Under the pieces are notes generated by a model, which was not told where the DNA came from, searched no databases, and was given only the letters and a program-made list of their open reading frames with translations. A DNA stretch of 34,346 bases from positions 1 through 34,346 of the forward strand of contig JAFUWF010000025.1 of the NCBI GenBank assembly GCA_017483575.1. Direction: 5' to 3'. Origin of the DNA: Bacteroidales bacterium (GTDB lineage Bacteria > Bacteroidota > Bacteroidia > Bacteroidales > P3). The translations under genes were made by a program, and so were the position numbers. Positions 4,456-32,219 of the stretch are shown here, piece after piece. Numbering within the stretch: the stretch's first letter is position 1; each line of letters begins with the position of its first letter.

Positions 4456-4495
4456 TAGTGGTCAGTGGCCAGTAGTCAGTGGTCAGTTGGCTGAC
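4456..4495. repeat. Left array of the 7-bp repeat TCAGTGG
   Basis: About four and a half units of a 7-bp repeat (TCAGTGG, with variants CCAGTAG and TCAGTTGG) on the plus strand, ending in a small hairpin (GTCAG TTGG CTGAC, 4482-4495). It is the inverse of the longer array at 4910-5075. It lies just upstream of the nhaD start codon. Confidence 0.9.
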
Positions 4496-4535
4496 GCGTC
4501 CTCGAACCGGTCACATGGCCTGGTTAATATTGTAT

Positions 4536-4898: not shown

Positions 4899-4909
4899 AT
4901 TTTAATTTT

Positions 4910-5075
4910 AACCACTGATTACTAACCACTGACCACTGACCACTAACCACTGACCACTAACCACTGACCACTGACCACTGACCACTAACCACTAACCACT
5001 GACCACTAACCACTGACCACTGACCACTGACCACTGGCCACTGACCACTGGCCACTGGCCACTGACCACTGACTA
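4910..5075. repeat. Right array of about 23 units of CCACTRA
   Basis: A 166-bp run of 7-bp units, mostly CCACTGA and CCACTAA, with a few CCACTGG near the right end. The phase is kept throughout. There are no unique spacers, so this is not a CRISPR. Its right end contains the yidC stop codon (TAG on the minus strand, within TAGTCAGTGG). Read on the minus strand it is the inverse of the left array. Confidence 0.95.
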
Positions 5076-15046: not shown

Positions 15047-15087
15047 AAAACGGGTCGATCCGAAAGGGTCGACCCGTTTTCTTTTTT
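15047..15087. terminator. Bidirectional terminator between the PepSY-like gene and mfd
   Basis: A 12-bp stem, AAAACGGGTCGA (15047-15058) with TCGACCCGTTTT (15069-15080), with T-runs on both sides (CTTTTTT on plus; TTTTGTTTTTG on minus). It ends both converging transcripts. The mfd stop codon overlaps its right T-run. Confidence 0.93.
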
Positions 15088-18000
15088 ATGCCGTCATCAG
15101 TCTTAGCGTCGCCAGGGCCTGCGTGATGGAGGTGATGTTGGCCACGCTGACGGTGAGCTTGTCGGGGGTCTCCTTGAGCCGTGTCTCGGTGGGATGGCTC
15201 TGGATGTAGCGGATGACCTTCATGAAGTTGTCGCTCTGGTAGAAGGGGCTCTGCTGGTTGCTGACGAGGTGTAGCACCATGCGGTCCTGCTTCAGCACAA
15301 TCTTTTCTATGCCGAACTCCTTGGCTATGCGGCGCAAGGTGATGGTGCGGATGAGCTCGTCCGTGGCCACGGGCACGGGCCCGAAGCGGTCCTCCAGGCG
15401 GCTGCGGTAGGCGGCCAGCTCCTCCTCCGTGCTCAGTTCATTTAATTCTTTGTAGAGTAGCAGGCGTTCGGAGACGGAGGTGACGTAGTCGTCGGGCAGC
15501 AGCACCTCGAGGTCGGTCTCGATGGTGCATTCGTGCACGTACTCCTTCTTCTCCTCGGCCTCGGCCACAAAGAGGTCTTTGAAGTCGCTCTCCTTCAGCT
15601 CCTCGATGGCCTCGTTGAGGATCTTGTGGTACATGTCGTAGCCTATCTCGGAGATGAAGCCGCTCTGCTCGGCGCCGAGGATGTTGCCGGCGCCGCGGAT
15701 GTCGAGGTCGCGCATGGCGATGTTGAAGCCGCTGCCGATGGTGGAGAACTCCTCGATGGCCTTGAGGCGTTTCTGTGCGTCGGGCGTGAGGGTGAGGTAG
15801 GAGGGGATGAGCATGTAGCAGAAGGCCTTCTTGTTCGAGCGCCCCACGCGGCCGCGCATCTGGTGCAGGTCGCTGAGACCGAACTGGTGGGCGTTGTTGA
15901 TAATCATGGTGTTGGCGTTGGGGATGTCCAGTCCATTCTCGACGATGGAGGTGGCCACAAGCACGTCGATGTCGCCCTCGAGGAAGCGCATCAGCGTCTC
16001 CTCGGCCTCCTTGCCGTCCATGCGTCCGTGGGCCATGGCCACGCGGGCGTCGGGCAGCAGGCGCTGCACGAGGCCGGCCATCTCCGGCAGGTTCTCCACA
16101 CGGTTGGAGATGAAGAAGGTCTGGCCGCCGCGGCTCATCTCGTAGCTGATGGCATCGCGGATCAGCTCCTCGCTGAAGTCGCTGAGTTCCGTCTCGATGG
16201 GCTGGCGGTTGGGGGGCGGCGTCTGGATGACGCTGAGGTCGCGCGCTCCCATCAGCGAGAACTGCAGCGTGCGCGGGATGGGCGTGGCGGTGAGGGTCAG
16301 GCAGTCGACGCCCACCTTCATCTCCTTCAGTTTCTCCTTGACGCTGACGCCGAATTTCTGCTCCTCGTCGACGATGAGCAGTCCGAGGTCCTTGAACTTC
16401 AGCTGCTTGTTGGTGATGGCGTGGGTGCCGATGAGGATGTCTATCTTGCCTTCCTCCACGTCCTTGTATATCTGGTTCTTCTCTTTGGTGGTGCGGAAAC
16501 GGTTGAGGTAGTCCACGCGCACGGGCATGCCTTTCAGGCGTTCGCAGAAGGTGTTGTAGTGCTGGAAGGCGAGGATGGTGCTGGGCACGAGGACGGCCAC
16601 CTGCTTGGAGTCGCAGCAGGCCTTGAAGGCGGCGCGTATGGCCACCTCGGTCTTGCCGAAGCCCACGTCGCCGCACACCAGGCGGTCCATGGGGGCGCGG
16701 TCCTCCATGTCGTGCTTCACGGCCACGGAGGCCTTCATCTGGTCCGGCGTGTCCTCGTACTGGAAGGAGGCTTCCATCTGCTCCTGCAGGGAGTTGTCGG
16801 CGCTGTAGGCAAAGCCCTGCGAGGCTTTGCGCTTGGCGTAGAGGGCTATGAGGTCCTTGGCGATGTCCTTCACCTGCCGCTTGGTCTTCTGTTTGAGCAC
16901 CTGCCAGGTGTTGCTGCCCAGGCGGTTGAGCTGCGGTGCTTCGCCCTCGCGGCCCACGTAGCGGCTGATCTTGTGCAGGCCGTGGATGGAAATGTAGAGG
17001 ACGTCGTTGTTCTTGTATATCAGGCGTATGAGCTCCTGGCTCTTGCCGTCGACGGTCACCTTCTCCAGCCCGCTGAAACGGCCCACGCCGTAGTCGATGT
17101 GGGTGACGAAGTCGCCGGGCTTCAGCTCGAAGAGCTCCTTCAGCGTCAGCGCCTCGTGGGCGGCGCTGAGGTTTTTCACCGTGTATTTGTGGTAGCGGTC
17201 GAAGATCTCGTGGTCGGTGTAGCAGAGCACGCGCTGACCGTGGTCGATGAAGCCGTGGGAGAGGTTTGTATTTAGGAGTGAAAGGGAGTGAAAGGGAGTG
17301 ACTCCCTTCTCACTCCCTGTCACTCCCAGGATTTTTTGCAGCCGTTTCTCTTGACTTTCGTTGCTGACGGTGATGAGGAGATGGTAGCCGCGCTCGGCGT
17401 AGTCGGAGAGGTTGGCGGTGAGGAGGTCGAACTGCTTGTTGAAGGAGGGCTGGGGCTCGCTCTGGGCTTTGAGGGTTTCGGCTTGGCTGAAGTAGTGGCT
17501 GTTGCCGTACTCCACAATCTTGCACTCCAGCAGGCGGTGGAGGAACTCGTTGGCGGGACAGCTGATCTCCTCGGGCTTGGGCAGGGTGCCGGCAATGGGG
17601 TGGGCCTTGTCGGCCAGGCGTTCGGCATAGGCCTTGCGGGTCTCCGCCAGAATCTTCTCCATGGTCTCCGCGGTCATCATCAGGCTCTGCGTCCAGACGA
17701 TGTCCTCGCTGCCAAAGTATTCCATCAGCGACACCATTTTGCTTTCTTTCTGCTCCCCTAAGTTAGGGGCGTTGTCAGCCGTTGGGCTGACTGAGGAGTG
17801 TGTCTGGTTGAGGTTGGGCACGATGTCGATGCGGTCCAACTGCTTGACACTGAGCTGCGACACGGTGTCGTAGGTGCGGAGGGAGTCCACTTCGTCGTCG
17901 AAGAACTCGATGCGGAAGGGCAGGTCGGAGGCGAAGGAGAAGACGTCGACGATGCCGCCGCGCACGGCGAAGTGGCCCGGGTCCACCACGAAGTCTTCGC

Positions 18001-18529
18001 GCTCGAAGCCCAGGTTCTCCAGCTTCTCCACGAGGTCCCACATGTCCATCTTGCTGCCCTTGGCCACGCGCAGCGTCTTGGCACCCAGCGTGCGCGGCGC
18101 CACCACCTTCTCGGCCAGCGCCTCGGGGTAGGAGACGACGATGGCGGGCTCCGAGCCTCCGAGGGTCTTCACCACCTCCGTGCGCATCAGCAGGTTGGCG
18201 TTGTCGGTGAGGTCGGTGTCGTAGTGGTAGGCCTTGCGGTAGCTCGTGGGGAATAGCATCACCTGGAGCGCCGGCGTCCCGCCGGCATTGATAGTGTCTT
18301 TGTCCCCCAGCAACGCTTCGATGTCGTTCTGCAGATAGAAAGCCTCCTCCTTCGTGGGGGCGATGACGAGGTGGCTCACGGTGGGGCATCGGCGCGCCAT
18401 GGCGGCAACGAGGACGGCGGGCAACGACCCCACGAGGCCGTCCACATGGAGACGTGCACGTTCCTTGCCCAGACGTTCGATTATCTGGGCTAGGAGCGCA
18501 CTCTCTTGGTAGAGTTCGGTTAGTATCAT
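15086..18529 (-). CDS. mfd: Transcription-repair coupling factor Mfd
   Basis: A 1147-aa DNA translocase that frees RNA polymerase stalled at lesions and recruits UvrA. The N-terminal UvrB-like part (about 1-420) includes RGGIVDVFSFASDLPFRIEFFDDEVDSLR. The RNA-polymerase-interaction domain (about 480-560) has LKPGDFVTHIDYGVGRF. The helicase core has Walker A GDVGFGKTEVAIRAAF (about 618-633), LLIVDEEQKFGV, TLTATPIPRTLQ and MRGRVGRSNKKAF, with a C-terminal TRCF domain. It seems longer than most Bacteroidota Mfd proteins, and three in-frame stretches look like inserted repeats: about residues 78-89, 243-259 and 401-419. All lie in the N-terminal half, outside the helicase core. uvrA, its repair partner, is also in the window. 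Confidence 0.97.
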   Translation of the reverse strand: MILTELYQESALLAQIIERLGKERARLHVDGLVGSLPAVLVAAMARRCPTVSHLVIAPTKEEAFYLQNDIEALLGDKDTINAGGTPALQVMLFPTSYRKAYHYDTDLTDNANLLMRTEVVKTLGGSEPAIVVSYPEALAEKVVAPRTLGAKTLRVAKGSKMDMWDLVEKLENLGFEREDFVVDPGHFAVRGGIVDVFSFASDLPFRIEFFDDEVDSLRTYDTVSQLSVKQLDRIDIVPNLNQTHSSVSPTADNAPNLGEQKESKMVSLMEYFGSEDIVWTQSLMMTAETMEKILAETRKAYAERLADKAHPIAGTLPKPEEISCPANEFLHRLLECKIVEYGNSHYFSQAETLKAQSEPQPSFNKQFDLLTANLSDYAERGYHLLITVSNESQEKRLQKILGVTGSEKGVTPFHSLSLLNTNLSHGFIDHGQRVLCYTDHEIFDRYHKYTVKNLSAAHEALTLKELFELKPGDFVTHIDYGVGRFSGLEKVTVDGKSQELIRLIYKNNDVLYISIHGLHKISRYVGREGEAPQLNRLGSNTWQVLKQKTKRQVKDIAKDLIALYAKRKASQGFAYSADNSLQEQMEASFQYEDTPDQMKASVAVKHDMEDRAPMDRLVCGDVGFGKTEVAIRAAFKACCDSKQVAVLVPSTILAFQHYNTFCERLKGMPVRVDYLNRFRTTKEKNQIYKDVEEGKIDILIGTHAITNKQLKFKDLGLLIVDEEQKFGVSVKEKLKEMKVGVDCLTLTATPIPRTLQFSLMGARDLSVIQTPPPNRQPIETELSDFSEELIRDAISYEMSRGGQTFFISNRVENLPEMAGLVQRLLPDARVAMAHGRMDGKEAEETLMRFLEGDIDVLVATSIVENGLDIPNANTMIINNAHQFGLSDLHQMRGRVGRSNKKAFCYMLIPSYLTLTPDAQKRLKAIEEFSTIGSGFNIAMRDLDIRGAGNILGAEQSGFISEIGYDMYHKILNEAIEELKESDFKDLFVAEAEEKKEYVHECTIETDLEVLLPDDYVTSVSERLLLYKELNELSTEEELAAYRSRLEDRFGPVPVATDELIRTITLRRIAKEFGIEKIVLKQDRMVLHLVSNQQSPFYQSDNFMKVIRYIQSHPTETRLKETPDKLTVSVANITSITQALATLRLMTA
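17274..17327. repeat. In-frame GGGAGTGA inverted repeat inside mfd
   Basis: Three GGAGTGA-type units (GGGAGTGAAA period of 10) are followed by their inverse (CACTCCC twice), making a hairpin. It encodes about residues 401-419 of Mfd (GVTGSEKGVTPFHSLSLL), low-complexity sequence between two conserved stretches. The frame is kept and there are no stops. Confidence 0.75.
17753..17800. repeat. In-frame double-hairpin palindromic element inside mfd
   Basis: Two perfect small stems in a row: CCCCTAA-G-TTAGGGG (17755-17769) and GTCAGCC-GTTG-GGCTGAC (17774-17791), enclosed by CTCC...GGAG. It encodes SSVSPTADNAPNLGEQ of Mfd (about residues 243-259). It resembles the intergenic element at 12449. Confidence 0.78.
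18270..18298. repeat. In-frame GCCGGC-N5-GCCGGC palindrome inside mfd
   Basis: GCCGGC GTCCC GCCGGC followed by ATTGATAGTG. It encodes TINAGGTPAL of Mfd (about residues 78-89). The same arrangement, GCCGGC-N5-GCCGGCATT...GATAGTG, lies inside glmM at 30966-30995, so this is a repeat family present in two unrelated genes. Confidence 0.78.
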
Positions 18530-18610
18530 AATTCCATAACGGCAAAAAAAACAAAATATTATTTATCTGTAGCAATTATTAGTTGAACTTAAGGACCCTT
18601 GGAAGCATGG

Positions 18611-18739
18611 TTACGTGAAAGGGTTTGCTGTATCGCGGGAGTTGTTACGGGTGTGCTGGTGGGCAATGGCATGGTAACGAACTTCGATAGGTCTCGTCCA
18701 ATCGGCAAATAAATTATCAAATATCAATAAAAATCGCAT
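18611..18739 (-). CDS. Possible small ORF upstream of mfd (42 aa)
   Basis: A short open frame with ATG at 18739 and TAA at 18611, 81 bases upstream of mfd on the same strand. The product begins MRFLLIFDNLFADWTRPIEV and ends RNNSRDTANPFT. I recognise no family, and no promoter is visible. It may be an uncalled small gene, a leader peptide or chance. The 411-bp gap it lies in (18530-18940) otherwise holds only the dispersed repeat at 18773. Confidence 0.25.
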   Translation of the reverse strand: MRFLLIFDNLFADWTRPIEVRYHAIAHQHTRNNSRDTANPFT

Positions 18740-18772
18740 TTTTGTAATTACTTATAAATCAGTATTTTATAC

Positions 18773-18848
18773 TATCATACTCTTCCCATCCTGTTACCAT
18801 CGTCATATTCCCTTCATACCAACCTCCCGTGGGGCAGAATTTGATAGG
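18773..18848 (+). repeat. Dispersed 76-bp intergenic element, copy A
   Basis: Aligns without gaps to 32420-32495: the first 20 bases (starting TATCATACTCTTCCC) are identical, and about two thirds of the 76 positions match overall, including TACCA, CCTC and ATTTGA. Both copies lie in divergent intergenic regions, in the same orientation, upstream of a rightward gene. Confidence 0.75.
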
Positions 18849-18940
18849 GTAAGGGGACGAGTTTATAATGTTAGTTTCTGGAAAAAAGGACACAATAAAA
18901 TGAAAAGAATGGCGTTATTGAAAAAAATAATAGAATTAAA

Positions 18941-19156
18941 ATGTGTACAATATCATTGACATACGATCAGAATAATGTGCTGGCTCAGCGCAAGTTGGCT
19001 GACTTGTTGGCCTCTGGCCTCTTCAAGAAGGCAAAGGCCGAGACCGCGGTGAAAAAGGAGATGAAAGAACTGGAACGCCGTATGGAAGCCTTTGAGAAGG
19101 GTGAGATGGAGACGGTGCCGCAGTCGGAGGTGTATAGTCGTGTAATGGCGTCGTAA
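18941..19156 (+). CDS. Small protein of unknown function (71 aa), possible antitoxin-like
   Basis: A 71-aa protein. The start (TISLTYDQNNVLAQRKLADLLASGLF) resembles small Bacteroidales proteins often found near toxin genes; the rest is a charged helix (KKAKAETAVKKEMKELERRMEAFEKG). No toxin follows. In the +1 frame after its stop there is a short open stretch (RQDPDALVRMLLRRDAIDVNDFENK, ending at 19234) that looks protein-like but has no good start codon, so a decayed partner or a frameshift is possible. It lies 94 bases before porX. The antitoxin suggestion is weak. Confidence 0.55.
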   Translation: MCTISLTYDQNNVLAQRKLADLLASGLFKKAKAETAVKKEMKELERRMEAFEKGEMETVPQSEVYSRVMAS

Positions 19157-19249
19157 TACCCGCCAGGATCCGGATGCGCTTGTGCGCATGTTGTTGCGAC
19201 GTGATGCAATTGATGTAAATGATTTTGAAAACAAATAAAAAAGAAAGAT

Positions 19250-20878
19250 ATGCAGACTAGGATTTTATGGGCCGATGACGAGATAGAGCTGTTGAAGCCT
19301 CATGTGTTGTTTCTGAAGGAAAAGGGATGCGAGGTGACGGCTGTGCAGAGCGGCGGCGATGCGCTGGACGAGCTGGAGGGGGGAGTGCTGCCGGACGTGG
19401 TGTTCCTGGACGAGCAGATGCCCGGCCTGAGCGGCATCGAGACGCTGCGCAGGGTGAAGGAGCGCTGGCCGCAGTTGCCGGTGGTGATGGTGACCAAGAG
19501 CGAGGAGGAGGGGCTGATGGAAGACGCCCTGGGCGGCAAGATCAGCGACTACCTCATCAAGCCCGTGAGCCCGAGCCAGCTGTGGCTGATGGTGAAGAAG
19601 CACACCGAGCGCAAGCGCCTGCAGAGCGAGCGCAGCACGATGAACTACCAGCAGGAGTTTCGCGAGATTGGCAATATGATTGGTGGCAGGATGGATGCCG
19701 AGGAGTGGAAGGATGTGTACCGCAAGCTGGTCTACTGGGACCTGGAGCTTGCCGGGAGCGAGGACGAGAACATCCACGAGATTTTCATGTCGCAGAAGGA
19801 GGATGCCAACCGTCAGTTCTGCCGTTTCTACGAGGAGAAGTACCTGAACTGGGTGGCCGGTGGGCAGGGGAGACCCTTGATGTCGCCGACGGTGCTGAAG
19901 GAGCGGATGTTCCCGCTGCTGAGTGGAGTGGAGAGTGGAGAACGGAGGGTGGAGAACAGAACTACGCAGGACCGTGGCAGCCGGTTCCCCACTCCCCACT
20001 CGCCTCTCTCCACTTTCCTCATCGTGATAGACAACTTCCGTTTCGACCAGTGGAAGTTCGTCCAGCCGTTGCTGGAGCAGTATTTCCGCACCGAGCGCGA
20101 AGACATGTACTACGCCATCCTGCCCACGACGACGCAGTTTGCGCGCAACGCCATGTTCGCCGGCTTGATGCCGAGCGAGATAGAGCGGATGTATCCGCAG
20201 TACTGGGTGAACGAGGACCAGGAGGGCTGGAAGAACCAGTACGAGGCCGAGCTGCTGGGCGAGAACCTGAGGCGCAACGGCATAGGGGTGAAGATGAGCT
20301 ACAACAAGGTGCTCAACGCACAGTACGGCAAGAAGCTCGTTGACCGCCTGCCGGAGCTGATGAGGAACGGACTGAACGTGATCATATACAACTTCATCGA
20401 CATGCTGAGTCATGCGCGTACGGATAGCGACATTGTGCGCGAGCTGGCGGAGGACGAGAAGGCCTACCGCAGCGTGACGCTGAGCTGGCTGGAGCATTCG
20501 CCGCTGATGGAGATACTGAAGGCGCTGAGCGAGAAGGATGTGAACGTCATCATCACCACCGACCACGGCAGCGTGAAGATAGACCATCCGGTGAGGGTGA
20601 AGGGCGACCGCGAGGTCAGCGTCAACCTGCGCTACAAGCAGGGACGGTTGCTGGACTACAATGCGAAGGATGTCTTCGAGGTGAAGGACCCGAAGCGGGC
20701 GTTCCTGCCGAAGCTGCACGTGACGAGCCCATACATCTTCTGCCGCGGGAACGATTTTTTCGCCTACCCGAACAACTACAACGAGTATGTGCGCTATTAC
20801 ACGAACACCTTCCAGCACGGCGGACTGTCGATGGAGGAGGTGCTGGTGCCGTTTGTGGTGCTGAGGAACAGGAAATGA
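19250..20878 (+). CDS. porX: PorX-type response regulator with PglZ domain (T9SS control)
   Basis: A 542-aa PorX homologue. The receiver domain (1-120) has acidic Asp9/Asp10, the phospho-accepting Asp54 in VVFLDEQMPG, Thr82 and Lys104 in DYLIKPVSP. A helical linker follows, then a C-terminal PglZ (alkaline-phosphatase-fold) domain, with FLIVIDNFRFDQW, DMLSHARTDSD and ITTDHGSVKI holding likely metal ligands. In Porphyromonas and relatives PorX with PorY and SigP controls T9SS, and the PglZ part acts on cyclic oligonucleotides. Residues 225-255 are a 31-aa in-frame insertion, encoded by an inverted repeat and placed just before the first PglZ strand; without it the length is near the usual ~515. 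The stop codon lies in a heptamer repeat. Confidence 0.94.
   Translation: MQTRILWADDEIELLKPHVLFLKEKGCEVTAVQSGGDALDELEGGVLPDVVFLDEQMPGLSGIETLRRVKERWPQLPVVMVTKSEEEGLMEDALGGKISDYLIKPVSPSQLWLMVKKHTERKRLQSERSTMNYQQEFREIGNMIGGRMDAEEWKDVYRKLVYWDLELAGSEDENIHEIFMSQKEDANRQFCRFYEEKYLNWVAGGQGRPLMSPTVLKERMFPLLSGVESGERRVENRTTQDRGSRFPTPHSPLSTFLIVIDNFRFDQWKFVQPLLEQYFRTEREDMYYAILPTTTQFARNAMFAGLMPSEIERMYPQYWVNEDQEGWKNQYEAELLGENLRRNGIGVKMSYNKVLNAQYGKKLVDRLPELMRNGLNVIIYNFIDMLSHARTDSDIVRELAEDEKAYRSVTLSWLEHSPLMEILKALSEKDVNVIITTDHGSVKIDHPVRVKGDREVSVNLRYKQGRLLDYNAKDVFEVKDPKRAFLPKLHVTSPYIFCRGNDFFAYPNNYNEYVRYYTNTFQHGGLSMEEVLVPFVVLRNRK
19921..20017. repeat. In-frame inverted array of GTGGAGA units inside porX
   Basis: Left arm: 7-bp units GTGGAGA, GTGGAGA, ACGGAGG, GTGGAGA (19921-19957). 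Right arm: CCCACTC, CCCACTC, GCCTCTC, TCCACTT (about 19987-20015), the inverse. Between them is about 27 bp of unique sequence. It adds 31 codons without a stop. The layout, two inverted heptamer arrays around a core, matches on a small scale the cassette at 4456-5075. Confidence 0.85.
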
Positions 20879-20898
20879 GAAATGGGAAATGAGAAATG
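20871..20898. repeat. Heptamer array RGAAATG across the porX stop codon
   Basis: Four 7-bp units: GGAAATG, AGAAATG, GGAAATG, AGAAATG, then A-rich sequence. The porX stop codon (TGA, 20876-20878) is formed by the first two units. The same start, GGAAATGAGAAA, directly follows the stop of the MBL gene at 9980. Confidence 0.85.
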
Positions 20899-20912
20899 AA
20901 AAATAAAAAGAT

Positions 20913-22400
20913 ATGAAGAGGTTTTTGACGATGATATGCGCTCTGGTGGCTATGTGCTGTGTGGTGCAGGGCCAGAGCATTACAATCACCAAAGGGGCGG
21001 TCGGCAAGCAGCTGGACGAGGAGTCGGTGCTGAACGGCTGGTACCTCGGCAGGCACGGCAAGAACGACTGCTGGCTGACGCGGACCGAGGACGGCCCGAA
21101 GAGTTTTGTGCGTAGCGACGACTGGCAGCTGGTGGAACTGGACCGCAACCTGAATGTGTATGGACGGCTGGAACTGCCGATGAGCAGGAACTGCAAGGTG
21201 GTGGCGGCAAGGACGCTGGACCGCTATGCGGACGTCATCATGGTGGACAGCAGCGAGGCCCGCAGGTTGACCCTGGTGAAGTTCGAAGTGGACCTGGACA
21301 GCATGAAGCTGACGGGAGACAAGATGGACACGCTGGCACAGTATGTGAAGGAACCGGCAGACAGGGGCTTTGTGTGGGGCGCGGTGAGCGAGAACGGCGA
21401 GTATGTGGGTGTGCTGACCCTGCTGCAGATGACCAAGAAGAAGCAGTATGTGGCCGAGGCAAGGATGTACGGCACGGAGCTGGATGAGGAGCTGTGGAGC
21501 AAGGAGTATGCCGTGGGTACGACAAGCAGCATCGCTGTGAGCAACGACGGCGACATGGTGACGTTCGGATATGAGGATGTGGATGCCGAGGAGCACTTCA
21601 CCATCAGCGTGCTTGGGAGCAAGAGCGGCGACACCTATGGAATCAAGATGAACTGCGACCGCGTGAAGGATATGCAGATTGTGAACATCGTCGGCCGCAA
21701 GGTGCTGTGTGCCGGCTTGTTCTCGCCCCGGAAGAGCAACCCGCGGGACAACATGGTGGGTGGCACGGTGTCGATGGCATTCGATATGGATTCCGCGAAG
21801 GTGTCGAATTTCATTGTCCGTTCGTTCATGAACGAGGACATGAACATCCTGCTGAACAAGAAGACGAAGAAGGTGCAGAAGAGCCAAGAGGCGCAGATGG
21901 TGGTGCCGCTGTCGTATGTGGCCATGCCCTATGGCGCCGTGCTGGCTGTAGGCCACAGGCATACGATGCGCTATGTGAACGCCAACGGCACGGTGGAAAC
22001 AAGCTTCTATGCCCAGGGCATACACCTGGTGGCGCTGGACGAGGACGGCAATGTGAAGTGGGCAAGGAATGTGCGCCGCAACGACATGCAGAAGCATACG
22101 GACGAGAAGCTGTACATGGGGCTGTTCGCCATGGGCGACACGGTGTGCCTCGTCAAGAGTGAGCATCCCAAGTATCCCGCCACGTACGATATCGCCAAGG
22201 ATGTGAAGGAACTGGAGATGGGCGACAAGAGCAACCTGGTGCTGTACGCCATCACCGAGAACGGCGATGTTAAAAAGACCGTACTGGAGCAGAAAACGAA
22301 ACACTCGCTGGTGTCGGCAGCCAAGAGAGGTGGCGGCGAGGTGGTGATGCTGACGCTGGACAACGGCAAGAGCCGCATGGTGGAGATGAAGATTGAATAA
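20913..22400 (+). CDS. Exported protein of unknown function (495 aa)
   Basis: A 495-aa protein with a signal peptide (about 1-21, MKRFLTMICALVAMCCVVQG). The mature chain is a series of beta strands with recurring patterns such as DRYADVIMVDSSEARRLTLVKF, GVLTLLQMTKKKQYVAEARMY, SIAVSNDGDMVTFGYED and GIHLVALDEDGNVKWARNV, suggesting a beta-propeller. No lipobox, membrane segment or sorting tail is evident, so it is probably periplasmic. It starts 34 bases after porX and may be cotranscribed with it, but I do not know it as a T9SS component. Confidence 0.75.
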   Translation: MKRFLTMICALVAMCCVVQGQSITITKGAVGKQLDEESVLNGWYLGRHGKNDCWLTRTEDGPKSFVRSDDWQLVELDRNLNVYGRLELPMSRNCKVVAARTLDRYADVIMVDSSEARRLTLVKFEVDLDSMKLTGDKMDTLAQYVKEPADRGFVWGAVSENGEYVGVLTLLQMTKKKQYVAEARMYGTELDEELWSKEYAVGTTSSIAVSNDGDMVTFGYEDVDAEEHFTISVLGSKSGDTYGIKMNCDRVKDMQIVNIVGRKVLCAGLFSPRKSNPRDNMVGGTVSMAFDMDSAKVSNFIVRSFMNEDMNILLNKKTKKVQKSQEAQMVVPLSYVAMPYGAVLAVGHRHTMRYVNANGTVETSFYAQGIHLVALDEDGNVKWARNVRRNDMQKHTDEKLYMGLFAMGDTVCLVKSEHPKYPATYDIAKDVKELEMGDKSNLVLYAITENGDVKKTVLEQKTKHSLVSAAKRGGGEVVMLTLDNGKSRMVEMKIE

Positions 22401-22423
22401 AAAAAAGAACTAAGCAACGAGAA

Positions 22424-25186: not shown

Positions 25187-25192
25187 ATAGCC

Positions 25193-25693
25193 ATGTTTGA
25201 AAAAGAAACCAAAAAGATAAAGAATACATCGCAGGTGGGCCTTTGGGGGTCGGCAGCAGTGGTCATTTTGGCGGCCCTCTTCCTGTATGCCAGCCCTTGG
25301 CGTTTCCCGATGCAGAGCGAATATGTCAACCGTTGGATGCTCATAGTGGGCAGTGTGCTGGCGGTGCTGTCGCTCAGCATGGCCCTTCTGGTCATCCGCA
25401 AGCAGGTGCCTCGTCTGCGTCAGACCGAGGGCCTCGGAGCCAAGCTGGCGGGCTATGCCGGCTATATCCAGTCGCTCTACCTCTCCATCCTCGCGGTGGT
25501 GGTGGTCCTTTGCCTGATGACGATGATTTCCAATCAGAATGTCCTGCTGATGCTGGCCATGGTGACTGTGCTGATGCTCATCCTGGCATACCCTAATATC
25601 TATAAGGTGAAGGTCGACCTCGGCCTCACCGACGAAGAGATGAAGTCGCTCTACGGCGACCGCTATATCGTTGAACAGAAGGATGAAAAATGA
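25193..25693 (+). CDS. Four-helix integral membrane protein of unknown function
   Basis: A 166-aa protein with four predicted membrane helices (about 17-37, 47-66, 93-110 and 113-131) and a short polar C-terminus (LTDEEMKSLYGDRYIVEQKDEK). No catalytic motif is visible. It starts 6 bases after uvrA and overlaps mnmE by 11 bases, so it belongs to the same transcript and is probably translationally coupled to mnmE. Confidence 0.8.
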   Translation: MFEKETKKIKNTSQVGLWGSAAVVILAALFLYASPWRFPMQSEYVNRWMLIVGSVLAVLSLSMALLVIRKQVPRLRQTEGLGAKLAGYAGYIQSLYLSILAVVVVLCLMTMISNQNVLLMLAMVTVLMLILAYPNIYKVKVDLGLTDEEMKSLYGDRYIVEQKDEK

Positions 25694-27020
25694 TACCATA
25701 GTGGCAATCTCCACTCCTCGCGGGGTGGGGGGTGTGGCGGTGGTGCGCCTCAGCGGACCGCAAGCCAAGGAGTTGGCGCTGCGTCATCTCTCGACGGACA
25801 CGCTGGCTCCACGCCACTCCCATTTCACTCGTTTCTCCGATTCGGAGGGCATGATCGACGAGGTGCTGGCGGTATGGTTCCCGGCACCCCATAGCTACAC
25901 GGGCGAAGAGATGGTCGAAATCTCCTGCCACGGCTCGCTCTATGTCCAACAAGCCATCGTGCAGTCTTTGCTCGATGACGGTGCCCGCCTGGCCGAGGCC
26001 GGCGAGTTCACGCTCAGGGCTTTCACCAACGGCAAACTCAACCTCTCGCAGGCCGAGGCTGTGGCCGACCTCATAGATGCCGTTACGCCGGCACAGCACA
26101 GGTTGGCCGTAAGCCAGCTCCGTGGAGGCTATGCGCAGACCCTCCGGGAACTGCGGCAACAGTTGCTCGACCTCACCTCGCTGCTCGAGCTGGAGTTGGA
26201 CTTCAGCCAGGAGGATGTCGAGTTCGCCGACCGTAGACAACTGGTACGGTTGGTTGACACACTCAGCATTCGGATCAACGAATTGCGCAGCACCTTCCAG
26301 CAGGGCAATGCCCTCAAACGGGGTATCCCCGTGGCAATCGTTGGCCGTCCCAATGCTGGCAAGTCGTCGCTGCTCAATGCATTGCTCAACGACAACAGGG
26401 CCATTGTCTCTCCAATCCCCGGCACCACCCGCGATACCATTGAGGAAACTTTCACCGCCGACGGGGTGACCTTTCGTATCATCGACACCGCAGGCCTTCG
26501 CCGCAGCGACGACCCCCTGGAGGCAATGGGGGTCCGCCGTACACTCGCTGCTGTGGTCCAGTCGGATATAATACTCTTTGTCTACGACATAACGGAACCC
26601 TTCTCCCAGGTCCTCGACGATGTACAGGAAATTCAGGACGCCTATCCCATCAAGGGCAAACACCTGTTCCTGGTGGCCAACAAGGCCGATTTGGTCCAGG
26701 AAATCAAGCCCTTTCATCACATTGCCGTGTCGGCAAAGGAGTCTGTCGGTATCGACCGCCTCAAGGGGATGCTTGTCAAGGTGGCAGGACAGGCCAATAC
26801 CGACGATGTGATTCTTACCAACGCCCGCCATTACGAGGCCCTGGGTCGTGTCGACCAGGCGTTGCGCCAAGTGGCTCTGGGCTTGCAGACCTCCCTCCCG
26901 TCCGATCTTGTCGCCATCGATCTCCGCGATGCCCTCTACCACCTCGGAACCATCACCGGCGAAGTGGCCAACGACGAGGTGCTGACCAACATCTTCTCCC
27001 GTTTCTGCATCGGAAAATAA
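25683..27020 (+). CDS. mnmE: tRNA modification GTPase MnmE
   Basis: A 445-aa GTPase which with MnmG modifies the wobble uridine (cmnm5U) of certain tRNAs. The N-terminal tetrahydrofolate-binding domain has TPRGVGGVAVVRLSG. The helical domain carries the inserted G domain: G1 GRPNAGKSSLLN (from residue 221), G2 GTTRDTIEE, G3 DTAGLRR and G4 NKAD. The C-terminus is FCIGK, with the family's essential Cys. I chose ATG 25683, overlapping the preceding gene by 11 bases, rather than TTG 25671. Confidence 0.97.
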   Translation: MKNDTIVAISTPRGVGGVAVVRLSGPQAKELALRHLSTDTLAPRHSHFTRFSDSEGMIDEVLAVWFPAPHSYTGEEMVEISCHGSLYVQQAIVQSLLDDGARLAEAGEFTLRAFTNGKLNLSQAEAVADLIDAVTPAQHRLAVSQLRGGYAQTLRELRQQLLDLTSLLELELDFSQEDVEFADRRQLVRLVDTLSIRINELRSTFQQGNALKRGIPVAIVGRPNAGKSSLLNALLNDNRAIVSPIPGTTRDTIEETFTADGVTFRIIDTAGLRRSDDPLEAMGVRRTLAAVVQSDIILFVYDITEPFSQVLDDVQEIQDAYPIKGKHLFLVANKADLVQEIKPFHHIAVSAKESVGIDRLKGMLVKVAGQANTDDVILTNARHYEALGRVDQALRQVALGLQTSLPSDLVAIDLRDALYHLGTITGEVANDEVLTNIFSRFCIGK

Positions 27021-27044
27021 ATGAAAGCAAAATAAATGAAAGAT

Positions 27045-28460
27045 ATGAAAAAATACACATTCACTCTTCTCCTGGCTCTTCTGCCGCTGCTCTCTGTGGC
27101 CGCCAAGCCCAGCTACAAGATCACCTTCATTGCCGAGGGCAACAAGGACTCCGTACTCTACATGGGATTCTATCTGGCTCAGTACAAGTACTTCTGCGAC
27201 ACGGCCTACAACAACGGCAAGGGCAAGTTTGTCTTCGAAGGCAACCAGGAGCTCGACCCCGGCCTCTATTACATCACCAACAACAGCGACCGCTTTGTCG
27301 AGTTTGCCGTCTATCATGAGAAACCCTTTTTCACCCTCCGCACCGACAACGACAACTGGAAACTCGGCATGTCCGCCAAGGGCTCGCACGAGAACGAGGT
27401 GTTCTTCAACTTCAACCGTGCCAACGAGTCGCTCTATCAGGATCTCATCTCGGCGAGCAAGACCATGGACTCCGCCGAGTTCCATGATGTCTACGCCCCG
27501 GCCCAGCGCTTGCGGCTCGACAGTGTCCGCCTCGGGTTCATCCGTCAGTACCCCGATTGTATGCTCTCTCGCATGATGATGGCTACCAAGGATGTGGAGG
27601 TCCCCACCGAGTTGCCCGACGGCACCCCCATGTCCTATCGCGAGCGGTACGACTGGCTCATGGCGCACTTCTTCGACAACGTGCCCCTCGACGACCCCTT
27701 CATCCTCCGCACCCCCAAGGAGGTCTTCTACGACCGCGTGATGGAGTATGTCGACAAACGCATGAACCGCATGCCGCCGGAGATGATTTGCCCGCTGCTC
27801 GACAGCATGATCGACCGCTCCAAGCCCGCCCCTGTGGTCTACCGCTGGCTTATCCTCAACATGACCAATCACTTCCTCCAGAGCAAGGTGATGGTCTACG
27901 ACGAGGTCTATGTCCACCTCGTGCAGCGCTATTTCGCCACCGGCGAGGTCACCGGCCTTGCCCCCTCGGTCATCGACGAGCAGATAGAACGCGCCACCAA
28001 GTGGGACCGCCTGCTCGTCGGCAAGGTGGCCCCCGAACTCATCCTCTTCGACACCAACCACCACGCCGCCTCGCTCCATCGCATGCCGGGCCGCTATACT
28101 TTGCTGCTGTTCTGGAGCCCCACCTGCGGCCACTGCCGCGAAATCATCCCGGAAGTGTACAAGGTCTACGAACGCTACGCCGACTCCCTCAACCTCAGCG
28201 CCTTCGCCATCCTCACCGAGCCCGACGACCAGACGGTTGTCAAATGGAAGAAGTTCCTCGCCGACCACCACATGTCCCATCCCTATTGGATTGACCTCAA
28301 CGGCGGCGAGGCCAATGTCGACTGGCGCGAGGTCTACGACGTCACCACCACTCCCCAGATCTACCTCATCGACAACCGCGACCACAAGTTCGTGGCCAAA
28401 AAACTCAGCGCCGACATCCTGGAAACCATTCTCCAGGCCATCATTAAGAATAATGAATAA
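27045..28460 (+). CDS. Exported thioredoxin-fold protein (DUF5106 / TlpA-like)
   Basis: A 471-aa exported protein. The start could be 27036 or 27045; the latter gives a cleaner signal peptide (MKKYTFTLLLALLPLLSVAA). Residues about 25-115 resemble the DUF4369-like beta domain found before TlpA domains. A helical middle region (about 115-320) follows, as in DUF5106 proteins. The C-terminal 140 residues are a TlpA-like thioredoxin domain with LLFWSPTCGHCREIIPEV (Cys361-Gly-His-Cys364) and the cis-Pro loop TTTPQIYLID. It is probably a periplasmic thiol-disulfide reductase. It lies between mnmE and the M3 peptidase with short gaps. Confidence 0.88.
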   Translation: MKKYTFTLLLALLPLLSVAAKPSYKITFIAEGNKDSVLYMGFYLAQYKYFCDTAYNNGKGKFVFEGNQELDPGLYYITNNSDRFVEFAVYHEKPFFTLRTDNDNWKLGMSAKGSHENEVFFNFNRANESLYQDLISASKTMDSAEFHDVYAPAQRLRLDSVRLGFIRQYPDCMLSRMMMATKDVEVPTELPDGTPMSYRERYDWLMAHFFDNVPLDDPFILRTPKEVFYDRVMEYVDKRMNRMPPEMICPLLDSMIDRSKPAPVVYRWLILNMTNHFLQSKVMVYDEVYVHLVQRYFATGEVTGLAPSVIDEQIERATKWDRLLVGKVAPELILFDTNHHAASLHRMPGRYTLLLFWSPTCGHCREIIPEVYKVYERYADSLNLSAFAILTEPDDQTVVKWKKFLADHHMSHPYWIDLNGGEANVDWREVYDVTTTPQIYLIDNRDHKFVAKKLSADILETILQAIIKNNE

Positions 28461-28480
28461 ATAAAGTAAAATACATCAAC

Positions 28481-30508
28481 ATGAAACGTACATTGTTCAT
28501 TGCCGCTATGGCCGCATTGCTGGCCACCGGCTGTAAAAATCAGAATGATATGGAAAATCCCTTCTTCTCCGCGTGGAACACGCCCTACGAGATTCCCGAC
28601 TTCTCGCGCATCAAGACCGAACACTACCTCCCTGCCTTCAAGGAGGGCATGGCCCGCCAACAGGCCGAAATCCAGTCCATTGTCGACAACCCCGAAGCAC
28701 CTACCTTCGAGAACACCATCCTCGCCTATGAATACAGCGGCCAGCTGCTCAAGGACGTCAGCGGCGTCTTCTTCAACCTCACCGAGTGCGAGAGCAACGA
28801 CGAGATGGACGCCATCGCCGAGACCGTGACGCCTCTCCTCTCCAAGCACGAGGACGACATCGCCCTCAACGCCCCCCTCTTCGCCCGCATCAAGGCCGTC
28901 TACGACCAGCACGAGCATGGAAAACTGGACCTCAAAGCCGAGCAGGCACGCCTCCTCTCCGAGACCTATAAGGGCTTCGTCCGCGCCGGCGCCAACGTCC
29001 CCGAGGAACAGCAGCCCCGCTTCCGCGAGCTCAACGAGCAGATAGCTTCCCTCACCCTCCGCTTCGCGCAGAACGTGCTGAAGGCCACCAACGCCTACAA
29101 GAAAGCCCTCCCCGGCGGCGACACCGTCACCCTCGACATCCCCACCTGGGAACCCTTCATGCAGTCCTGCACCGACCGCAAGCTCCGCGAGGAGGTGTGG
29201 CACGCCTATGCCGACCGTTGCCAGGGCGGCGAGTTCGACAACACCAAGATCATCGACACCCTCGTCAACCTCCGCCTCGAGCGCGCCAATATCCTCGGCT
29301 TCCCCACCCATGCCGACTACGTCCTCGACGACTGCCTGGCCAAGACCCCTGCCGCCGTCTACAGCTGCCTCAACGCCATCTGGGGCCCCGCCCTCAAGGT
29401 GGCCAAGCAGGAACGCGACCTCTACCAGGCAATGCTCGAGAAGGACGAGTCCGGCGCCAAGCTCCAGCCCTGGGACTGGCGCTACTACGCTGAGAAATAC
29501 CGCGTCGAGAAATACGCCATCGACGACGCCGAGGTGCGCCCCTACTTCGCCCTCGACAGCGTCCGCGAAGGGGCCTTCATGGTGGCCAACCGCCTCTACG
29601 GCCTCACCTTCCGCGAGCGCACCGACCTGCCCACCTACGACCGCGAGGCCCGCTGCTTCGAGGTCCGCCAGGGCGACTCCACCGTCGGCATCCTCTACAT
29701 GGACTTCCACCCCCGCGCCTCCAAGCGCAGCGGAGCCTGGATGACCGAGTTCCGCGGCCAGCACCGCACCCTCGACGGCCAGAACGTCATGCCCATCATC
29801 CAGGTGGTATGCAACTTCACCAAGCCCACGGCCGACCGCCCGTCGCTCCTCAACTTCGACGAGAGCGAGACCCTCTTCCACGAGTTCGGCCACGCCCTCC
29901 ACGGCCTCCTCTCCAACTGCACCTACCCCTCCATCGCCGGCACCAACGTGCCGCGCGACTTTGTCGAGCTGCCCTCGCAGGTCATGGAGAACTGGTGCCG
30001 CCATCCGCAAATCATGAAGATGTACGCCCACCACTACCAGACCGGCGCCGCCATCCCCGACGCCCTCATCCAGAAGATTGCCGCCGCACAGACCTACGGC
30101 CAGGGCTTCATGACCACCGAGCTCCTTGCAGCCTCCCTGCTCGACATGGACTACTATACTATCAAGGAGAAGCAGCACATCGACCCGCTGCAGTTCGAAC
30201 AGCAGGCCATGGACAAAATCGGCCTCATCCCCGAAATCATCAGCCGCTACCGCTCGCCCTATTTCCAGCACATCTTCACCACCGGCTACGACGCCGGCTA
30301 CTACTCCTACACCTGGACGGCCATCCTCGACGCCGACGCCTTCGAGGCCTTCGCCGAGAGCGGCGACCTCTTCAATCCCGAGTTGGCCAGGAAGTTCCGC
30401 CACCTCCTCGAGAGCGGCAATACCGTCGAGCCCATGGACCTCTACCGCGCCTTCCGCGGCAAAGACCCCAGTGCCAACGCCCTGCTCAAACGCAAAGGCA
30501 TGCTGTGA
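28481..30508 (+). CDS. M3 family zinc metallopeptidase, lipoprotein (dipeptidyl carboxypeptidase-like)
   Basis: A 675-aa peptidase of family M3, close to dipeptidyl carboxypeptidase Dcp, which removes dipeptides from C-termini of short peptides. The zinc site is HEFGHALHG (His467, Glu468, His471), with the third ligand Glu in FVELPSQVMENW. Other M3 features are the Tyr/Gly-rich GYDAGYYSYTW segment and the C-terminal MDLYRAFRGKDP. The signal peptide ends in a lipobox (ATGC, Cys18), so unlike cytoplasmic Dcp it is membrane-anchored outside the cytoplasm, as often in Bacteroidales. It starts 20 bases after the TlpA-like gene. Confidence 0.95.
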   Translation: MKRTLFIAAMAALLATGCKNQNDMENPFFSAWNTPYEIPDFSRIKTEHYLPAFKEGMARQQAEIQSIVDNPEAPTFENTILAYEYSGQLLKDVSGVFFNLTECESNDEMDAIAETVTPLLSKHEDDIALNAPLFARIKAVYDQHEHGKLDLKAEQARLLSETYKGFVRAGANVPEEQQPRFRELNEQIASLTLRFAQNVLKATNAYKKALPGGDTVTLDIPTWEPFMQSCTDRKLREEVWHAYADRCQGGEFDNTKIIDTLVNLRLERANILGFPTHADYVLDDCLAKTPAAVYSCLNAIWGPALKVAKQERDLYQAMLEKDESGAKLQPWDWRYYAEKYRVEKYAIDDAEVRPYFALDSVREGAFMVANRLYGLTFRERTDLPTYDREARCFEVRQGDSTVGILYMDFHPRASKRSGAWMTEFRGQHRTLDGQNVMPIIQVVCNFTKPTADRPSLLNFDESETLFHEFGHALHGLLSNCTYPSIAGTNVPRDFVELPSQVMENWCRHPQIMKMYAHHYQTGAAIPDALIQKIAAAQTYGQGFMTTELLAASLLDMDYYTIKEKQHIDPLQFEQQAMDKIGLIPEIISRYRSPYFQHIFTTGYDAGYYSYTWTAILDADAFEAFAESGDLFNPELARKFRHLLESGNTVEPMDLYRAFRGKDPSANALLKRKGML

Positions 30509-30569
30509 TTAGTTGTCCTGCGTAGCTTCGAGTAATTAGTTTAATTCGCCGTTAAAAAAAAATAGCAAC

Positions 30570-30764
30570 ATGGAAAACTACAGTTACCGCCGCCTCACCC
30601 GCAGCACCACCAATCGCAAAATCGCCGGTGTCTGCGGTGGCATCGCCCGTTACCTCAACCTCGACCCCACGGTCGTCCGCATCGTCTTCCTCCTCGCCCT
30701 CTTCTGCGGCTCCTTCGGCTTCTGGGCCTACGTCATCGTCTGGCTCGCCGCCCCCGAGGAATAA
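30570..30764 (+). CDS. PspC domain protein
   Basis: A 64-aa protein that is nearly all PspC domain: RRLTRSTTNRKIAGVCGGIARYLNLDPTVVRIVFLLALF then one membrane helix ending VWLAAPEE. PspC domains take part in phage-shock-type envelope stress responses as small inner-membrane proteins; no pspA is seen here. It is the last gene of the rightward run and ends a few bases before a strong terminator. Confidence 0.93.
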   Translation: MENYSYRRLTRSTTNRKIAGVCGGIARYLNLDPTVVRIVFLLALFCGSFGFWAYVIVWLAAPEE

Positions 30765-30806
30765 AAAAAAAACGGGCCCCGCCGTTCGGCGGGGCCCGTT
30801 TTTTTA
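30765..30806. terminator. Strong bidirectional terminator between the PspC gene and glmM
   Basis: A 14-bp perfect stem, AACGGGCCCCGCCG (30771-30784) with its inverse (30787-30800), a two-base TT gap, and T-runs on both sides (T7 on plus; A-run at 30763-30772 giving T's on minus). The glmM stop codon overlaps the right T-run. Confidence 0.96.
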
Positions 30807-32219
30807 TATCTGCTGCATCACCTGCTGCGCCAGCTCGCCCGCGCGGGCCTCGGTGGCGGCTTCGCTGTAGATGCGGATGATGGGCTCGGTGTTGCTCTTG
30901 CGCAGGTGCACCCAGCCGTCGGCGAAGTCAATCTTCACGCCGTCGATGGTGGTCACCGTTGGACCGCCGGCATCTTGCCGGCATTCGCGATAGTGGCTTG
31001 CAACTTTCTCCAGCAACGCGTCGACGTCCATCTCCGGCGTCAGGTCCTTGCGGTTCTTGCTGATGATGTATTCGGGGTAGGTCTTGCGCAATTCGCTGAT
31101 CTTCATGCCCTTCTTGGCTAGCAGGGTGAGGAAGAGCGCCACGCCAACGAGGGCGTCGCGGCCGTAGTGCAGCTCGGGATAGATGACGCCTCCGTTGCCC
31201 TCGCCGCCGATGACGGCGTGGGTCTCGCGCATCAGGGTGGTGACATTCACCTCGCCCACGGCGGCGGCGTTGTACTCACAACCGGCGTACCGGCGCGTGA
31301 CGTCGCGCAGGGCGCGGCTGGACGAGAGGTTGCTCACCGTGTTGCCCGGCGTATGGCTGAGCACGTAGTCGGCCACACTGACCAGCGTGTACTCCTCGCC
31401 GAACATCTCGCCCGTCTCGCACACCAGGGCCAGACGGTCCACATCGGGATCGACGACGATGCCCAGGTCGCAATGGTTCTCGCGCACACAGTCGCTTATC
31501 TGCGTCAGGTTCTGCGGAATAGGCTCGGGGTTGTGGGCGAAGTGACCCGTAGGCTCGCAGTTGAGCTCCACCACCTGCTCCACGCCCAGGCGGCGCAGCA
31601 GACGCGGAATGGCCAGGCCGCCGGTGCTGTTGACGGCATCCACGGCTACCTTGAAGCCGGCCTTGCGGATGGCCTCGGTGTCAACGAGCTTCAGACCCAG
31701 CACGCGCTCGATGTGGCGGTCGATCCAGTCCTCCTCGACGGTCACCTGCCCCAGGTCGTCCACCTCGGCATACTGCAAATCCGGGCTCTCGGCCAGACGC
31801 AGCACCTCTTTGCCCTCGGCGTCAGAGATGAATTCGCCCTTGGCGTTCAGCAGCTTGAGGGCGTTCCAGTGCTTGGGGTTGTGGCTGGCGGTGATGATGA
31901 TGCCGCCGTCGCAGTGGCCGTCGATGACGGTCATCTCGGTCGTCGGGGTCGTGCTCAGGCCCGTCTCCAGCACGTCGACACCCATGCCCTGCAGGGTGCC
32001 CACCACGAGGCGGTCCACCATGGCGCCGCTCAGGCGTGCGTCGCGCCCCACGGCCAGCTTCAGCCGGCGACTCTGCGACGCTGCGTCTTTGCAACTTTGC
32101 GACTTCAAAAATGTAGCAAATGCTGTGGTGAACTTCACCACGTCTATGGGGCTCAGCCCCTCGCCCGGACGGCCACCGATGGTGCCGCGGATTCCGGAAA
32201 TCGATTTGATAAGGCTCAT
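30804..32219 (-). CDS. glmM: Phosphoglucosamine mutase (phosphohexomutase family)
   Basis: A 471-aa enzyme converting glucosamine-6-phosphate to glucosamine-1-phosphate for UDP-GlcNAc synthesis. The active-site loop is ITASHNPKHWNALK with phosphoserine Ser112. The metal loop is VDPDVDRLAL, the sugar loop GEGNGGVIYP and the phosphate loop KSNTEPIIRIYSEA. The start is set at ATG 32219 (SLIKSISGIRGT), which fits the family; an earlier ATG would add 14 unlikely residues. Two in-frame stretches look like repeat insertions: residues about 39-51 (8-bp GTCGCAAA units) and about 409-418 (GCCGGC palindrome). Both lie outside the active-site loops. Its stop lies in the terminator. No clear promoter upstream. 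Confidence 0.92.
   Translation of the reverse strand: MSLIKSISGIRGTIGGRPGEGLSPIDVVKFTTAFATFLKSQSCKDAASQSRRLKLAVGRDARLSGAMVDRLVVGTLQGMGVDVLETGLSTTPTTEMTVIDGHCDGGIIITASHNPKHWNALKLLNAKGEFISDAEGKEVLRLAESPDLQYAEVDDLGQVTVEEDWIDRHIERVLGLKLVDTEAIRKAGFKVAVDAVNSTGGLAIPRLLRRLGVEQVVELNCEPTGHFAHNPEPIPQNLTQISDCVRENHCDLGIVVDPDVDRLALVCETGEMFGEEYTLVSVADYVLSHTPGNTVSNLSSSRALRDVTRRYAGCEYNAAAVGEVNVTTLMRETHAVIGGEGNGGVIYPELHYGRDALVGVALFLTLLAKKGMKISELRKTYPEYIISKNRKDLTPEMDVDALLEKVASHYRECRQDAGGPTVTTIDGVKIDFADGWVHLRKSNTEPIIRIYSEAATEARAGELAQQVMQQI
30966..30996. repeat. In-frame GCCGGC-N5-GCCGGC palindrome inside glmM
   Basis: GCCGGC ATCTT GCCGGC followed by ATTCGCGATAGTGG; it encodes ECRQDAGGPT of GlmM. It matches the mfd element at 18270 in layout and flanking bases (GCCGGCATT then GATAGTG). 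Same strand orientation in both. Confidence 0.78.
32067..32105. repeat. In-frame 8-bp tandem repeat (GTCGCAAA) inside glmM
   Basis: On the minus strand: GTCGCAAA, GTTGCAAA, GACGCAGC, GTCGCAGA, GTCGC. It encodes SQSCKDAASQSRR between the conserved ATFLK helix and the KLAVGRDARLSG strand. The 39-bp length keeps the frame. Confidence 0.78.

What the first reader, a model, noticed from the sequence alone, without database searches (positions are those of the whole stretch)
15086..32219. Short repeats inserted in frame into several conserved genes
mfd (three places), glmM (two) and porX (one) each contain low-complexity stretches that coincide with hairpins or tandem units in the DNA and sit between conserved protein segments. 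At least four repeat families are involved. All keep the frame and avoid stops. This recalls Rickettsia palindromic elements, which insert into protein genes, and suggests a general process that seeds repeats across this genome, with only frame-neutral insertions surviving in essential genes.
Basis: partly seen in the sequence, partly recalled or inferred. Interest (0 to 1): 0.82.

Follow-up and report, generated by a model that had tools for sequence, protein, structure and literature searches.

The report
Hairpin repeat elements inside conserved genes
In this group of uncultured gut bacteria, short hairpin DNA elements built of 7- to 10-letter repeats keep turning up in frame inside everyday genes, and they look like stripped-down copies of a little-known element that carries the gene for a small "four-helix bundle" protein.

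Summary
The porX insert is real (net +25 residues; absent from 29 of 29 other fetched genus orthologues). The mfd stretches sit in linkers of variable length, each with a different dispersed repeat. One glmM stretch is a small extra; the second is conserved sequence.

Following it up: period 7 is the commonest of periods 3-25 in a 41% sample of this genome (45 arrays inside predicted genes, 38 not wholly inside). Near the window, arrays in conserved genes favour variable linkers (106 against 2.4 per 100 kb). Some form hairpins: purine-rich arm, loop, GCGTCAGC-like core (11 of 22), pyrimidine-rich arm. One HtpG position carries inserts in 9 of 19 species, on my tree gained several times.

At 4457-5077 the same architecture encloses a PF05635 gene (23S rRNA intervening-sequence protein). 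Inverted flanks enclose such genes at 21 of 27 tested genus loci and 10 of 20 tested plasmid loci, mostly cyanobacterial. I propose that the heptamer and decamer hairpins in genes are gene-less derivatives. Movement is not shown. Rickettsia palindromic elements are an analogy, not a shown relationship.

The parts
19922..20011 (+). in-frame insert in porX (aa 225-254); heptamer-arm hairpin (arms 19920-19957 and 19984-20021)
18269..18286 (-). mfd site 1: palindrome GCCGGCGGGACGCCGGCG in the linker after NDIEALLG; 21 hits in the 798-kb sample
17752..17800 (-). mfd site 2: piece of a palindromic family (35 hits in the 798-kb sample), in a variable linker
17274..17327 (-). mfd site 3: inverted GGGAGTGAAA decamers; unit resembles the arms around PF05635 genes of G007, G008, G002, G045
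32067..32105 (-). glmM site 1 (aa 53-65): two GCAAAGT-like heptamers and GACGCAGCGTC; about 6 extra aa; weak
31308..31337 (-). glmM site 2: conserved sequence, NOT an insert
4911..5077 (-). 5' arm of the gene-bearing hairpin element: about 24 AGTGGTC-type heptamers, reaching the yidC stop codon
4536..4898 (-). PF05635 / TIGR02436 gene (23S rRNA intervening-sequence protein, four-helix bundle), 120 aa, inside the hairpin loop
4489..4500 (-). core GACGCGTCAGCC at the junction with the 3' arm
4457..4488 (-). 3' arm: AACTGACCACTGACTACTGGCCACTGACCACT, complementary to the 5' arm

Best explanation
The heptamer and decamer inserts are miniature hairpin elements. The full element has a purine-rich arm of tandem 7- to 10-bp units, a loop with a PF05635 gene and (in one type) a core like GACGCGTCAGCC, then a pyrimidine-rich arm that pairs with the first. 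Gene-less copies keep arms, loop and, in half of those found, the core. Shown: the architecture, its presence over the genus and on plasmids of other phyla, inserts at one HtpG position in several lineages, in-frame residence in linkers. Inferred: that the gene-less hairpins derive from the gene-bearing ones; that the PF05635 protein or its RNA helps them move; that arms lengthen, shrink and change by slippage, which gives each species its own repeat 'dialect'. Survival in genes would need only a stop-free frame and a tolerant linker, leader or loop. mfd sites 1 and 2 are other palindromic families, so more than one process is at work in this window.
For: Period 7 dominates non-triplet periods in genes (45, against 0 to 5 for periods 4, 5, 8, 10, 11, 13). 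In 13 orthologue groups (152 proteins): 14 period-7 arrays in 13.2 kb of variable segments, 5 in 212 kb of conserved ones. GCG(T/C)CAGC lies in the purine-first loop of 11 of 22 period-7 hairpins, and on either strand of the loop in 4 of 126 other hairpins (the motif was first seen in these same hairpins). Independent of that, GCGTCAGC is followed by a period-7 array in G007 4 of 20 (40 permuted motifs: 3 of 383) and G002 5 of 33 (3 of 334); in G000 8 of 127 (11 of 1721); the array is pyrimidine-rich in 11 and purine-rich in 0 classed cases. HtpG: inserts in 9 of 19 species, five Fitch steps, or seven losses if inserted once; G007, G002 and G008/G023 share a core though their arms differ. PF05635: 57 of 59 genus genomes over cut-off, 0 of 14 control genomes; inverted flanks above the control 95th percentile at 21 of 27 testable loci (281 control genes, Mann-Whitney p = 3e-12) and 1 of 26 shifted flanks; tandem runs 16 of 27 against 80 of 281 and 4 of 26 shifted. 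Plasmids: inverted score over 17 at 10 of 20 against 1 of 20 shifted; tandem runs 15 of 20 against 1 of 20.
Against: No movement, target-site duplication or strain-level empty site was seen; the porX flanks show no duplication. The core test gave 0 of 10 in G036; 11 of 22 hairpins lack the core; among 18 gene-bearing loci read only 3 have the core downstream. Six of 27 genus loci and 10 of 20 plasmid loci lack strong inverted flanks. The loci tested were the best-scoring 30 that were fetched, not a random draw. G001 carries the gene-bearing element at the same yidC place, so that copy need not be recent. The window element aligns with the gene-less hairpin at L095 6250-6315 in both orientations (scores 31 and 36), which is weak proof of descent because arms are simple repeats. 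At HtpG my period test flags 5 of the 9 inserts; in the rest repeats are seen by eye or not at all. Six of 16 in-gene arrays add no length.
Confidence: 0.55

Rival explanations
1. In-place slippage. Replication slippage makes 7-bp tandem repeats anywhere; constraint removes them except in intergenic DNA and tolerant linkers. Nothing moves.
For: Heptamers are the most abundant long simple repeats in most genomes of one survey (Mrazek 2007, as cited in PMC4679880, section 3 read). Linkers behave like intergenic DNA. Arms differ between species at one site.
Against: Does not by itself give hairpins around a shared core, the same core at HtpG in separate lineages, sharing of units between unlinked loci of one genome (0.0595 within against 0.0268 between genomes, 0 of 5000 label shuffles, 183 arrays from 6 genomes; 2 of 5000 when units of extreme GC are left out), or the PF05635 link.
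Confidence: 0.25
2. REP or RPE-like palindromes moved by a Y1 (RAYT) transposase.
For: Y1 transposases in 29 of 41 genus genomes, three matches in this one; REP-like palindromes beside several of them; intragenic REPs are known in other bacteria (PMC3733652, section 15 read). Fits mfd site 1, whose palindrome also lies near the partial Y1 match in L133.
Against: No period-7 array in the flanks of 12 of 12 Y1 genes scanned, and their hairpins have other sequences.
Confidence: 0.1
3. A reverse transcriptase writes the repeats, telomerase-like.
For: Fixed unit length with free sequence would fit; PF05635 is remotely similar to Avd, a partner of retroelement reverse transcriptases (matches under the cut-offs).
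Against: No RVT_1 match in G000, G002 or G007 (15 of 41 genomes have one), yet all three are rich in arrays. G000 is only 77.7% complete.
Confidence: 0.04
4. Loss of the hairpin nuclease SbcCD lets palindromes persist (a permissive cause, not a source).
For: SbcD over cut-off in 26 of 59 genus genomes, in 0 of the 14 sampled genomes whose full-length Mfd is at least 78% identical, the group richest in in-gene arrays. That SbcCD cuts hairpins is recalled.
Against: G025 and G054 have SbcD and in-gene arrays; the 14 genomes are close relatives, so perhaps one event; genomes with split Mfd matches were left out of the grouping.
Confidence: 0.15

Closest known systems
[quoted passage not shown]
   Same: S23-family ORF in the loop of a stem made by terminal inverted repeats; called selfish, once proposed to be mobile; IVSs replace a small loop in a conserved gene.
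   Different: Here the elements lie between and inside protein genes, many arms are tandem 7-10-bp repeats, and gene-less forms occur. Excision by RNase III untested here.
Rickettsia palindromic elements (Ogata 2000, 2002, as told in PMC10969869, passages read)
   Same: Palindromes inserted in frame into unrelated, conserved genes.
   Different: RPEs are about 150 bp in ten families; here arms are short tandem repeats that differ by species.
Intragenic REPs, GTAG/CGTC-tagged (PMC3733652, passages and section 15 read)
   Same: Short palindromes in coding frames, many in DNA repair genes, in recB at about the same site in two species. mfd site 1 is closest to this.
   Different: Heptamer hairpins showed no link with Y1 transposase genes here.
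Heptanucleotide repeats: LSSR (Mrazek 2007, as cited in PMC4679880), TAACTGA arrays (PMC4679880, abstract and sections 3, 12, 15 read), cyanobacterial STRR (recalled)
   Same: Unit of 7 bp; TAACTGA arrays mostly intergenic, some in genes.
   Different: What I read treats direct repeats; here many are arms of hairpins, some round a PF05635 gene.
BrickBuilt MITE of Porphyromonas gingivalis (PMC4596501, search listing only)
   Same: Miniature inverted-repeat element holding a minisatellite, in Bacteroidales.
   Different: Not compared.

Membership tests
23S rRNA IVS / S23 element | PF05635 ORF | tested here: met
   134 bits, cut-off 33.8
23S rRNA IVS / S23 element | ORF in the loop of a stem of terminal inverted repeats | tested here: met
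   window 4457-5077, inverted score 29; 21 of 27 genus loci above the control 95th percentile
23S rRNA IVS / S23 element | located in a 23S rRNA gene | tested here: not met
   the window copy lies between yidC and the next protein gene
23S rRNA IVS / S23 element | excised from RNA by RNase III | not testable with these tools
   needs RNA
Rickettsia palindromic elements | palindrome inserted in frame in conserved genes | tested here: met
   porX, HtpG, L133 gene
Rickettsia palindromic elements | sequence of an RPE family | not tested
   no RPE consensus was compared
REP with RAYT | same repeats flank the Y1 transposase gene | tested here: not met
   period-7 arrays beside 0 of 12 Y1 genes
MITE | target-site duplication | tested here: inconclusive
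   none seen at porX; other sites not examined
Heptanucleotide long simple sequence repeats | tandem 7-bp arrays far above expectation | tested here: met
   44 against 1

The most novel reading that the evidence does not exclude
PF05635 four-helix-bundle proteins are the resident genes of a widespread class of mobile hairpin elements without a known transposase; 23S intervening sequences are the special case in rRNA, and many of the unexplained heptamer repeats of cyanobacteria and Bacteroidota are their gene-less offspring, which also supply new linkers and leader peptides to proteins.
Probability: 0.35. Interest if true: 0.92.

Novelty: new variant of a known kind. Interest (0 to 1): 0.8.

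Why it matters
It would tie together three unexplained things: 7-bp tandem repeats in bacteria, the small S23/four-helix-bundle gene family found in 87 of 118 sampled Bacteroidota genomes, and low-complexity inserts in conserved proteins. It also gives a testable case in which repeat DNA becomes protein: arrays start within the first 40 codons in 11 of 33 array-bearing genes, several in leaders that look like signal peptides by eye, and one chaperone position seems to have been filled several times. I did not find the PF05635-repeat link in print, but only one search asked for it (three papers listed, one read in part); the others asked about repeats, REPs, RPEs or MITEs. The library holds open-licence papers only.

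Tried and rejected
Rejected or weakened: glmM site 2 as an insert; RAYT as mover of the heptamer hairpins; reverse transcriptase as writer; SbcCD loss as sufficient or necessary cause; the full 16-bp palindrome GGCTGACGCGTCAGCC as a general mark: 20 of 119 genus genomes, none in G000, against 9 of 119 for the reversed control pattern; 0 of 198 in the order sample against 2 of 198 for the control; 7 of 22 sites inspected had a period-7 neighbour by my threshold, some others looked period-8 by eye. An empty-site test at the yidC place gave no empty relative: among the loci held only G001 had both neighbours, and it carries the element too. In-gene arrays are concentrated near G000: 90 in 1.52 Mb of sampled DNA (798 kb of it G000) from 14 genomes with full-length Mfd at least 78% identical, 3 in 320 kb from 16 others; four genomes with split Mfd matches were left out of that sum (3 arrays, all in G025). 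There were 0 in 192 kb of coding DNA at 30 loci outside the group, though 7 period-7 arrays lay outside genes there. Phage records held no PF05635 match. A first look at PF05635 flanks used a motif that missed 12 of 30 loci and was replaced. Gene calls come from a small codon-usage script of mine, not a standard gene finder; no signal-peptide predictor was run; HtpG and methyltransferase are names given by eye. Rows dropped: 3 of 30 PF05635 loci with cut flanks; G010 (match does not reach the site), G024 and G025 (no match) at HtpG; 21 of 41 plasmid records not fetched.
Full report
Setting. The window is contig C13 of a 1.96-Mb draft genome (30 contigs, 77.7% complete).

The three genes. porX carries 30 residues where its closest relative has 5 (net +25), made by a hairpin of GTGGAGA-type heptamers; 29 of 29 other fetched orthologues lack it, and in the best solved PorX the two parts it separates are 2 residues apart. 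Among 80 named porX loci, three others have inserts of 8 or more residues by my column threshold, at this place or elsewhere. mfd has three variable linkers, each holding a different dispersed repeat; in relatives the same linkers hold other repeats or none. glmM has one small extra stretch; its second stretch is conserved in 29 of 29.

The general pattern. In the 798-kb sample of this genome, period-7 arrays number 45 inside predicted genes and 38 not wholly inside; in genes, periods 4, 5, 8, 10, 11 and 13 give 0, 0, 5, 2, 1 and 0. An AT-rich 11-bp family has 76 hits, 75 of them outside predicted genes. In 13 orthologue groups around the window, period-7 arrays occur at 106 per 100 kb in variable segments and 2.4 in conserved ones; apart from the double period 14, period 8 comes next with 45.

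Inserted or rewritten. I tested 16 of 41 in-gene arrays against 7 relatives with one joined query. Three segments are at least 5 residues longer here than in every relative measured, seven longer than in some, six than in none; the lengths are over the whole matched segment. In a gene that looks like an RNA methyltransferase a ten-residue linker of nearly constant length is written in AATTCTC here, CACTCAT in G002, CTCTCAC in G036 and, by eye, a 9-bp unit in G056, with no flagged repeat in G046. Units are shared within a genome more than between genomes (0.0595 against 0.0268; 0 of 5000 shuffles).

A hot spot. In HtpG (L104 6835-8799) ten of 19 species have 14 residues between ADKLEEM and WDD, nine of them close to SKKKEGEEKSALE; nine species have 19-33 residues there, of which my period test flags repeats in five. 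On an Mfd+HtpG tree this takes five changes, or seven losses if inserted once (several deep branches weakly supported). G007, G002 and the pair G008/G023 carry GACGC- or GACGCGTCAGCC-type cores with different arms. Because the short form is nearly the same in clades on both sides, I read it as ancestral and the inserts as repeated gains.

The core. Eleven of 22 period-7 hairpins have GCG(T/C)CAGC in the purine-first loop, mostly just before the pyrimidine-rich arm; 4 of 126 other hairpins have it on either strand. In the porX hairpin only a looser form, GTGGCAGCC, is seen. The motif is followed by an array about ten times more often than permuted motifs in G000, with the same direction in G007 and G002 and nothing in G036. 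One frame of the core reads TGA, which limits in-gene frames.

The gene-bearing form. At 5077-4457 (minus strand) lie about 24 AGTGGTC-type units, a 120-aa PF05635 gene, GACGCGTCAGCC, then AACTGACCACTGACTACTGGCCACTGACCACT. A gene-less hairpin with the same units and core lies at L095 6250-6315. PF05635 genes are in 57 of 59 genus genomes over cut-off, up to 18 matches per genome. At 27 testable loci of the 30 fetched the inverted-flank score has median 23 against 11 for 281 control genes; 21 exceed the control 95th percentile; flanks shifted by 220 nt give 1 of 26. Tandem runs are beside 16 of 27. The arms at G007, G008, G002 and G045 resemble the decamer of mfd site 3. The core was seen downstream at only 3 of 18 loci.

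Beyond the genus. Of 41 plasmid records with a match I fetched 20 of the best (18 cyanobacteria, one Gemmatimonadota, one Azospirillum). Tandem 7- to 9-bp runs lie beside the gene in 15 of 20 (shifted flanks 1 of 20); strong inverted flanks in 10 of 20 (1 of 20). Among strong cases of both sets the 5' arm is over 60% purine in 22 of 31 and under 40% in 1. In Bacteroidota at large the gene is in 87 of 118 genomes over cut-off, but flanks could not be read there.

Protein consequences. Arrays start within the first 40 codons of 11 of 33 array-bearing genes (671 predicted genes), although those codons are 11.5% of coding DNA. Several give leaders that look like signal peptides by eye; in L091 3140-4480 the purine arm gives MKNKKGKMKNKK and the pyrimidine arm LFLISHFSFLI, before a lipobox-like LIVSC.

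Verdict. Best reading: gene-less relatives of PF05635 hairpin elements, together with other palindromic families in the same window. Movement, ends and the role of the protein are inferred.

Noticed in passing
G000 sample loci L091 4360-4484, L094 13096 and 14167, L140 6119, L144 13054, L145 1888: Heptamer arrays encode the hydrophobic part of leaders that look like signal peptides; in L094 13096 and 14167 the core TGCGTCAGC gives the residues CVS.
   Followed up: partly
14 sampled genomes with full-length Mfd at least 78% identical to G000: No SbcD over cut-off in 14 of 14, against 26 of 59 genus genomes overall; possible link to palindrome tolerance, with counterexamples G025 and G054.
   Followed up: partly
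L112 1957-2298, L114 3309-3650, L313, L314: Y1 (RAYT-like) genes with REP-like palindromes beside them, different between genomes.
   Followed up: partly
window 139-180 and other hits in the 798-kb sample: AT-rich 11-bp tandem family (ACTATATGTAT): 76 hits, 75 outside predicted genes.
   Followed up: no
L397, L399, L405, L406 (cyanobacterial plasmids): The PF05635 gene sits between genes of one system: two ribonucleotide reductase subunits, cas6 and cas4 (twice), cas10 and a Cmr3-family gene.
   Followed up: no
window 5073-5077: The yidC stop codon lies in the first repeat of the 5' arm of the gene-bearing element.
   Followed up: no
window 747-845: Hexamer-based repeat encoding an NPDPDP tract in a gene with a lipoprotein-like start.
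   Followed up: no
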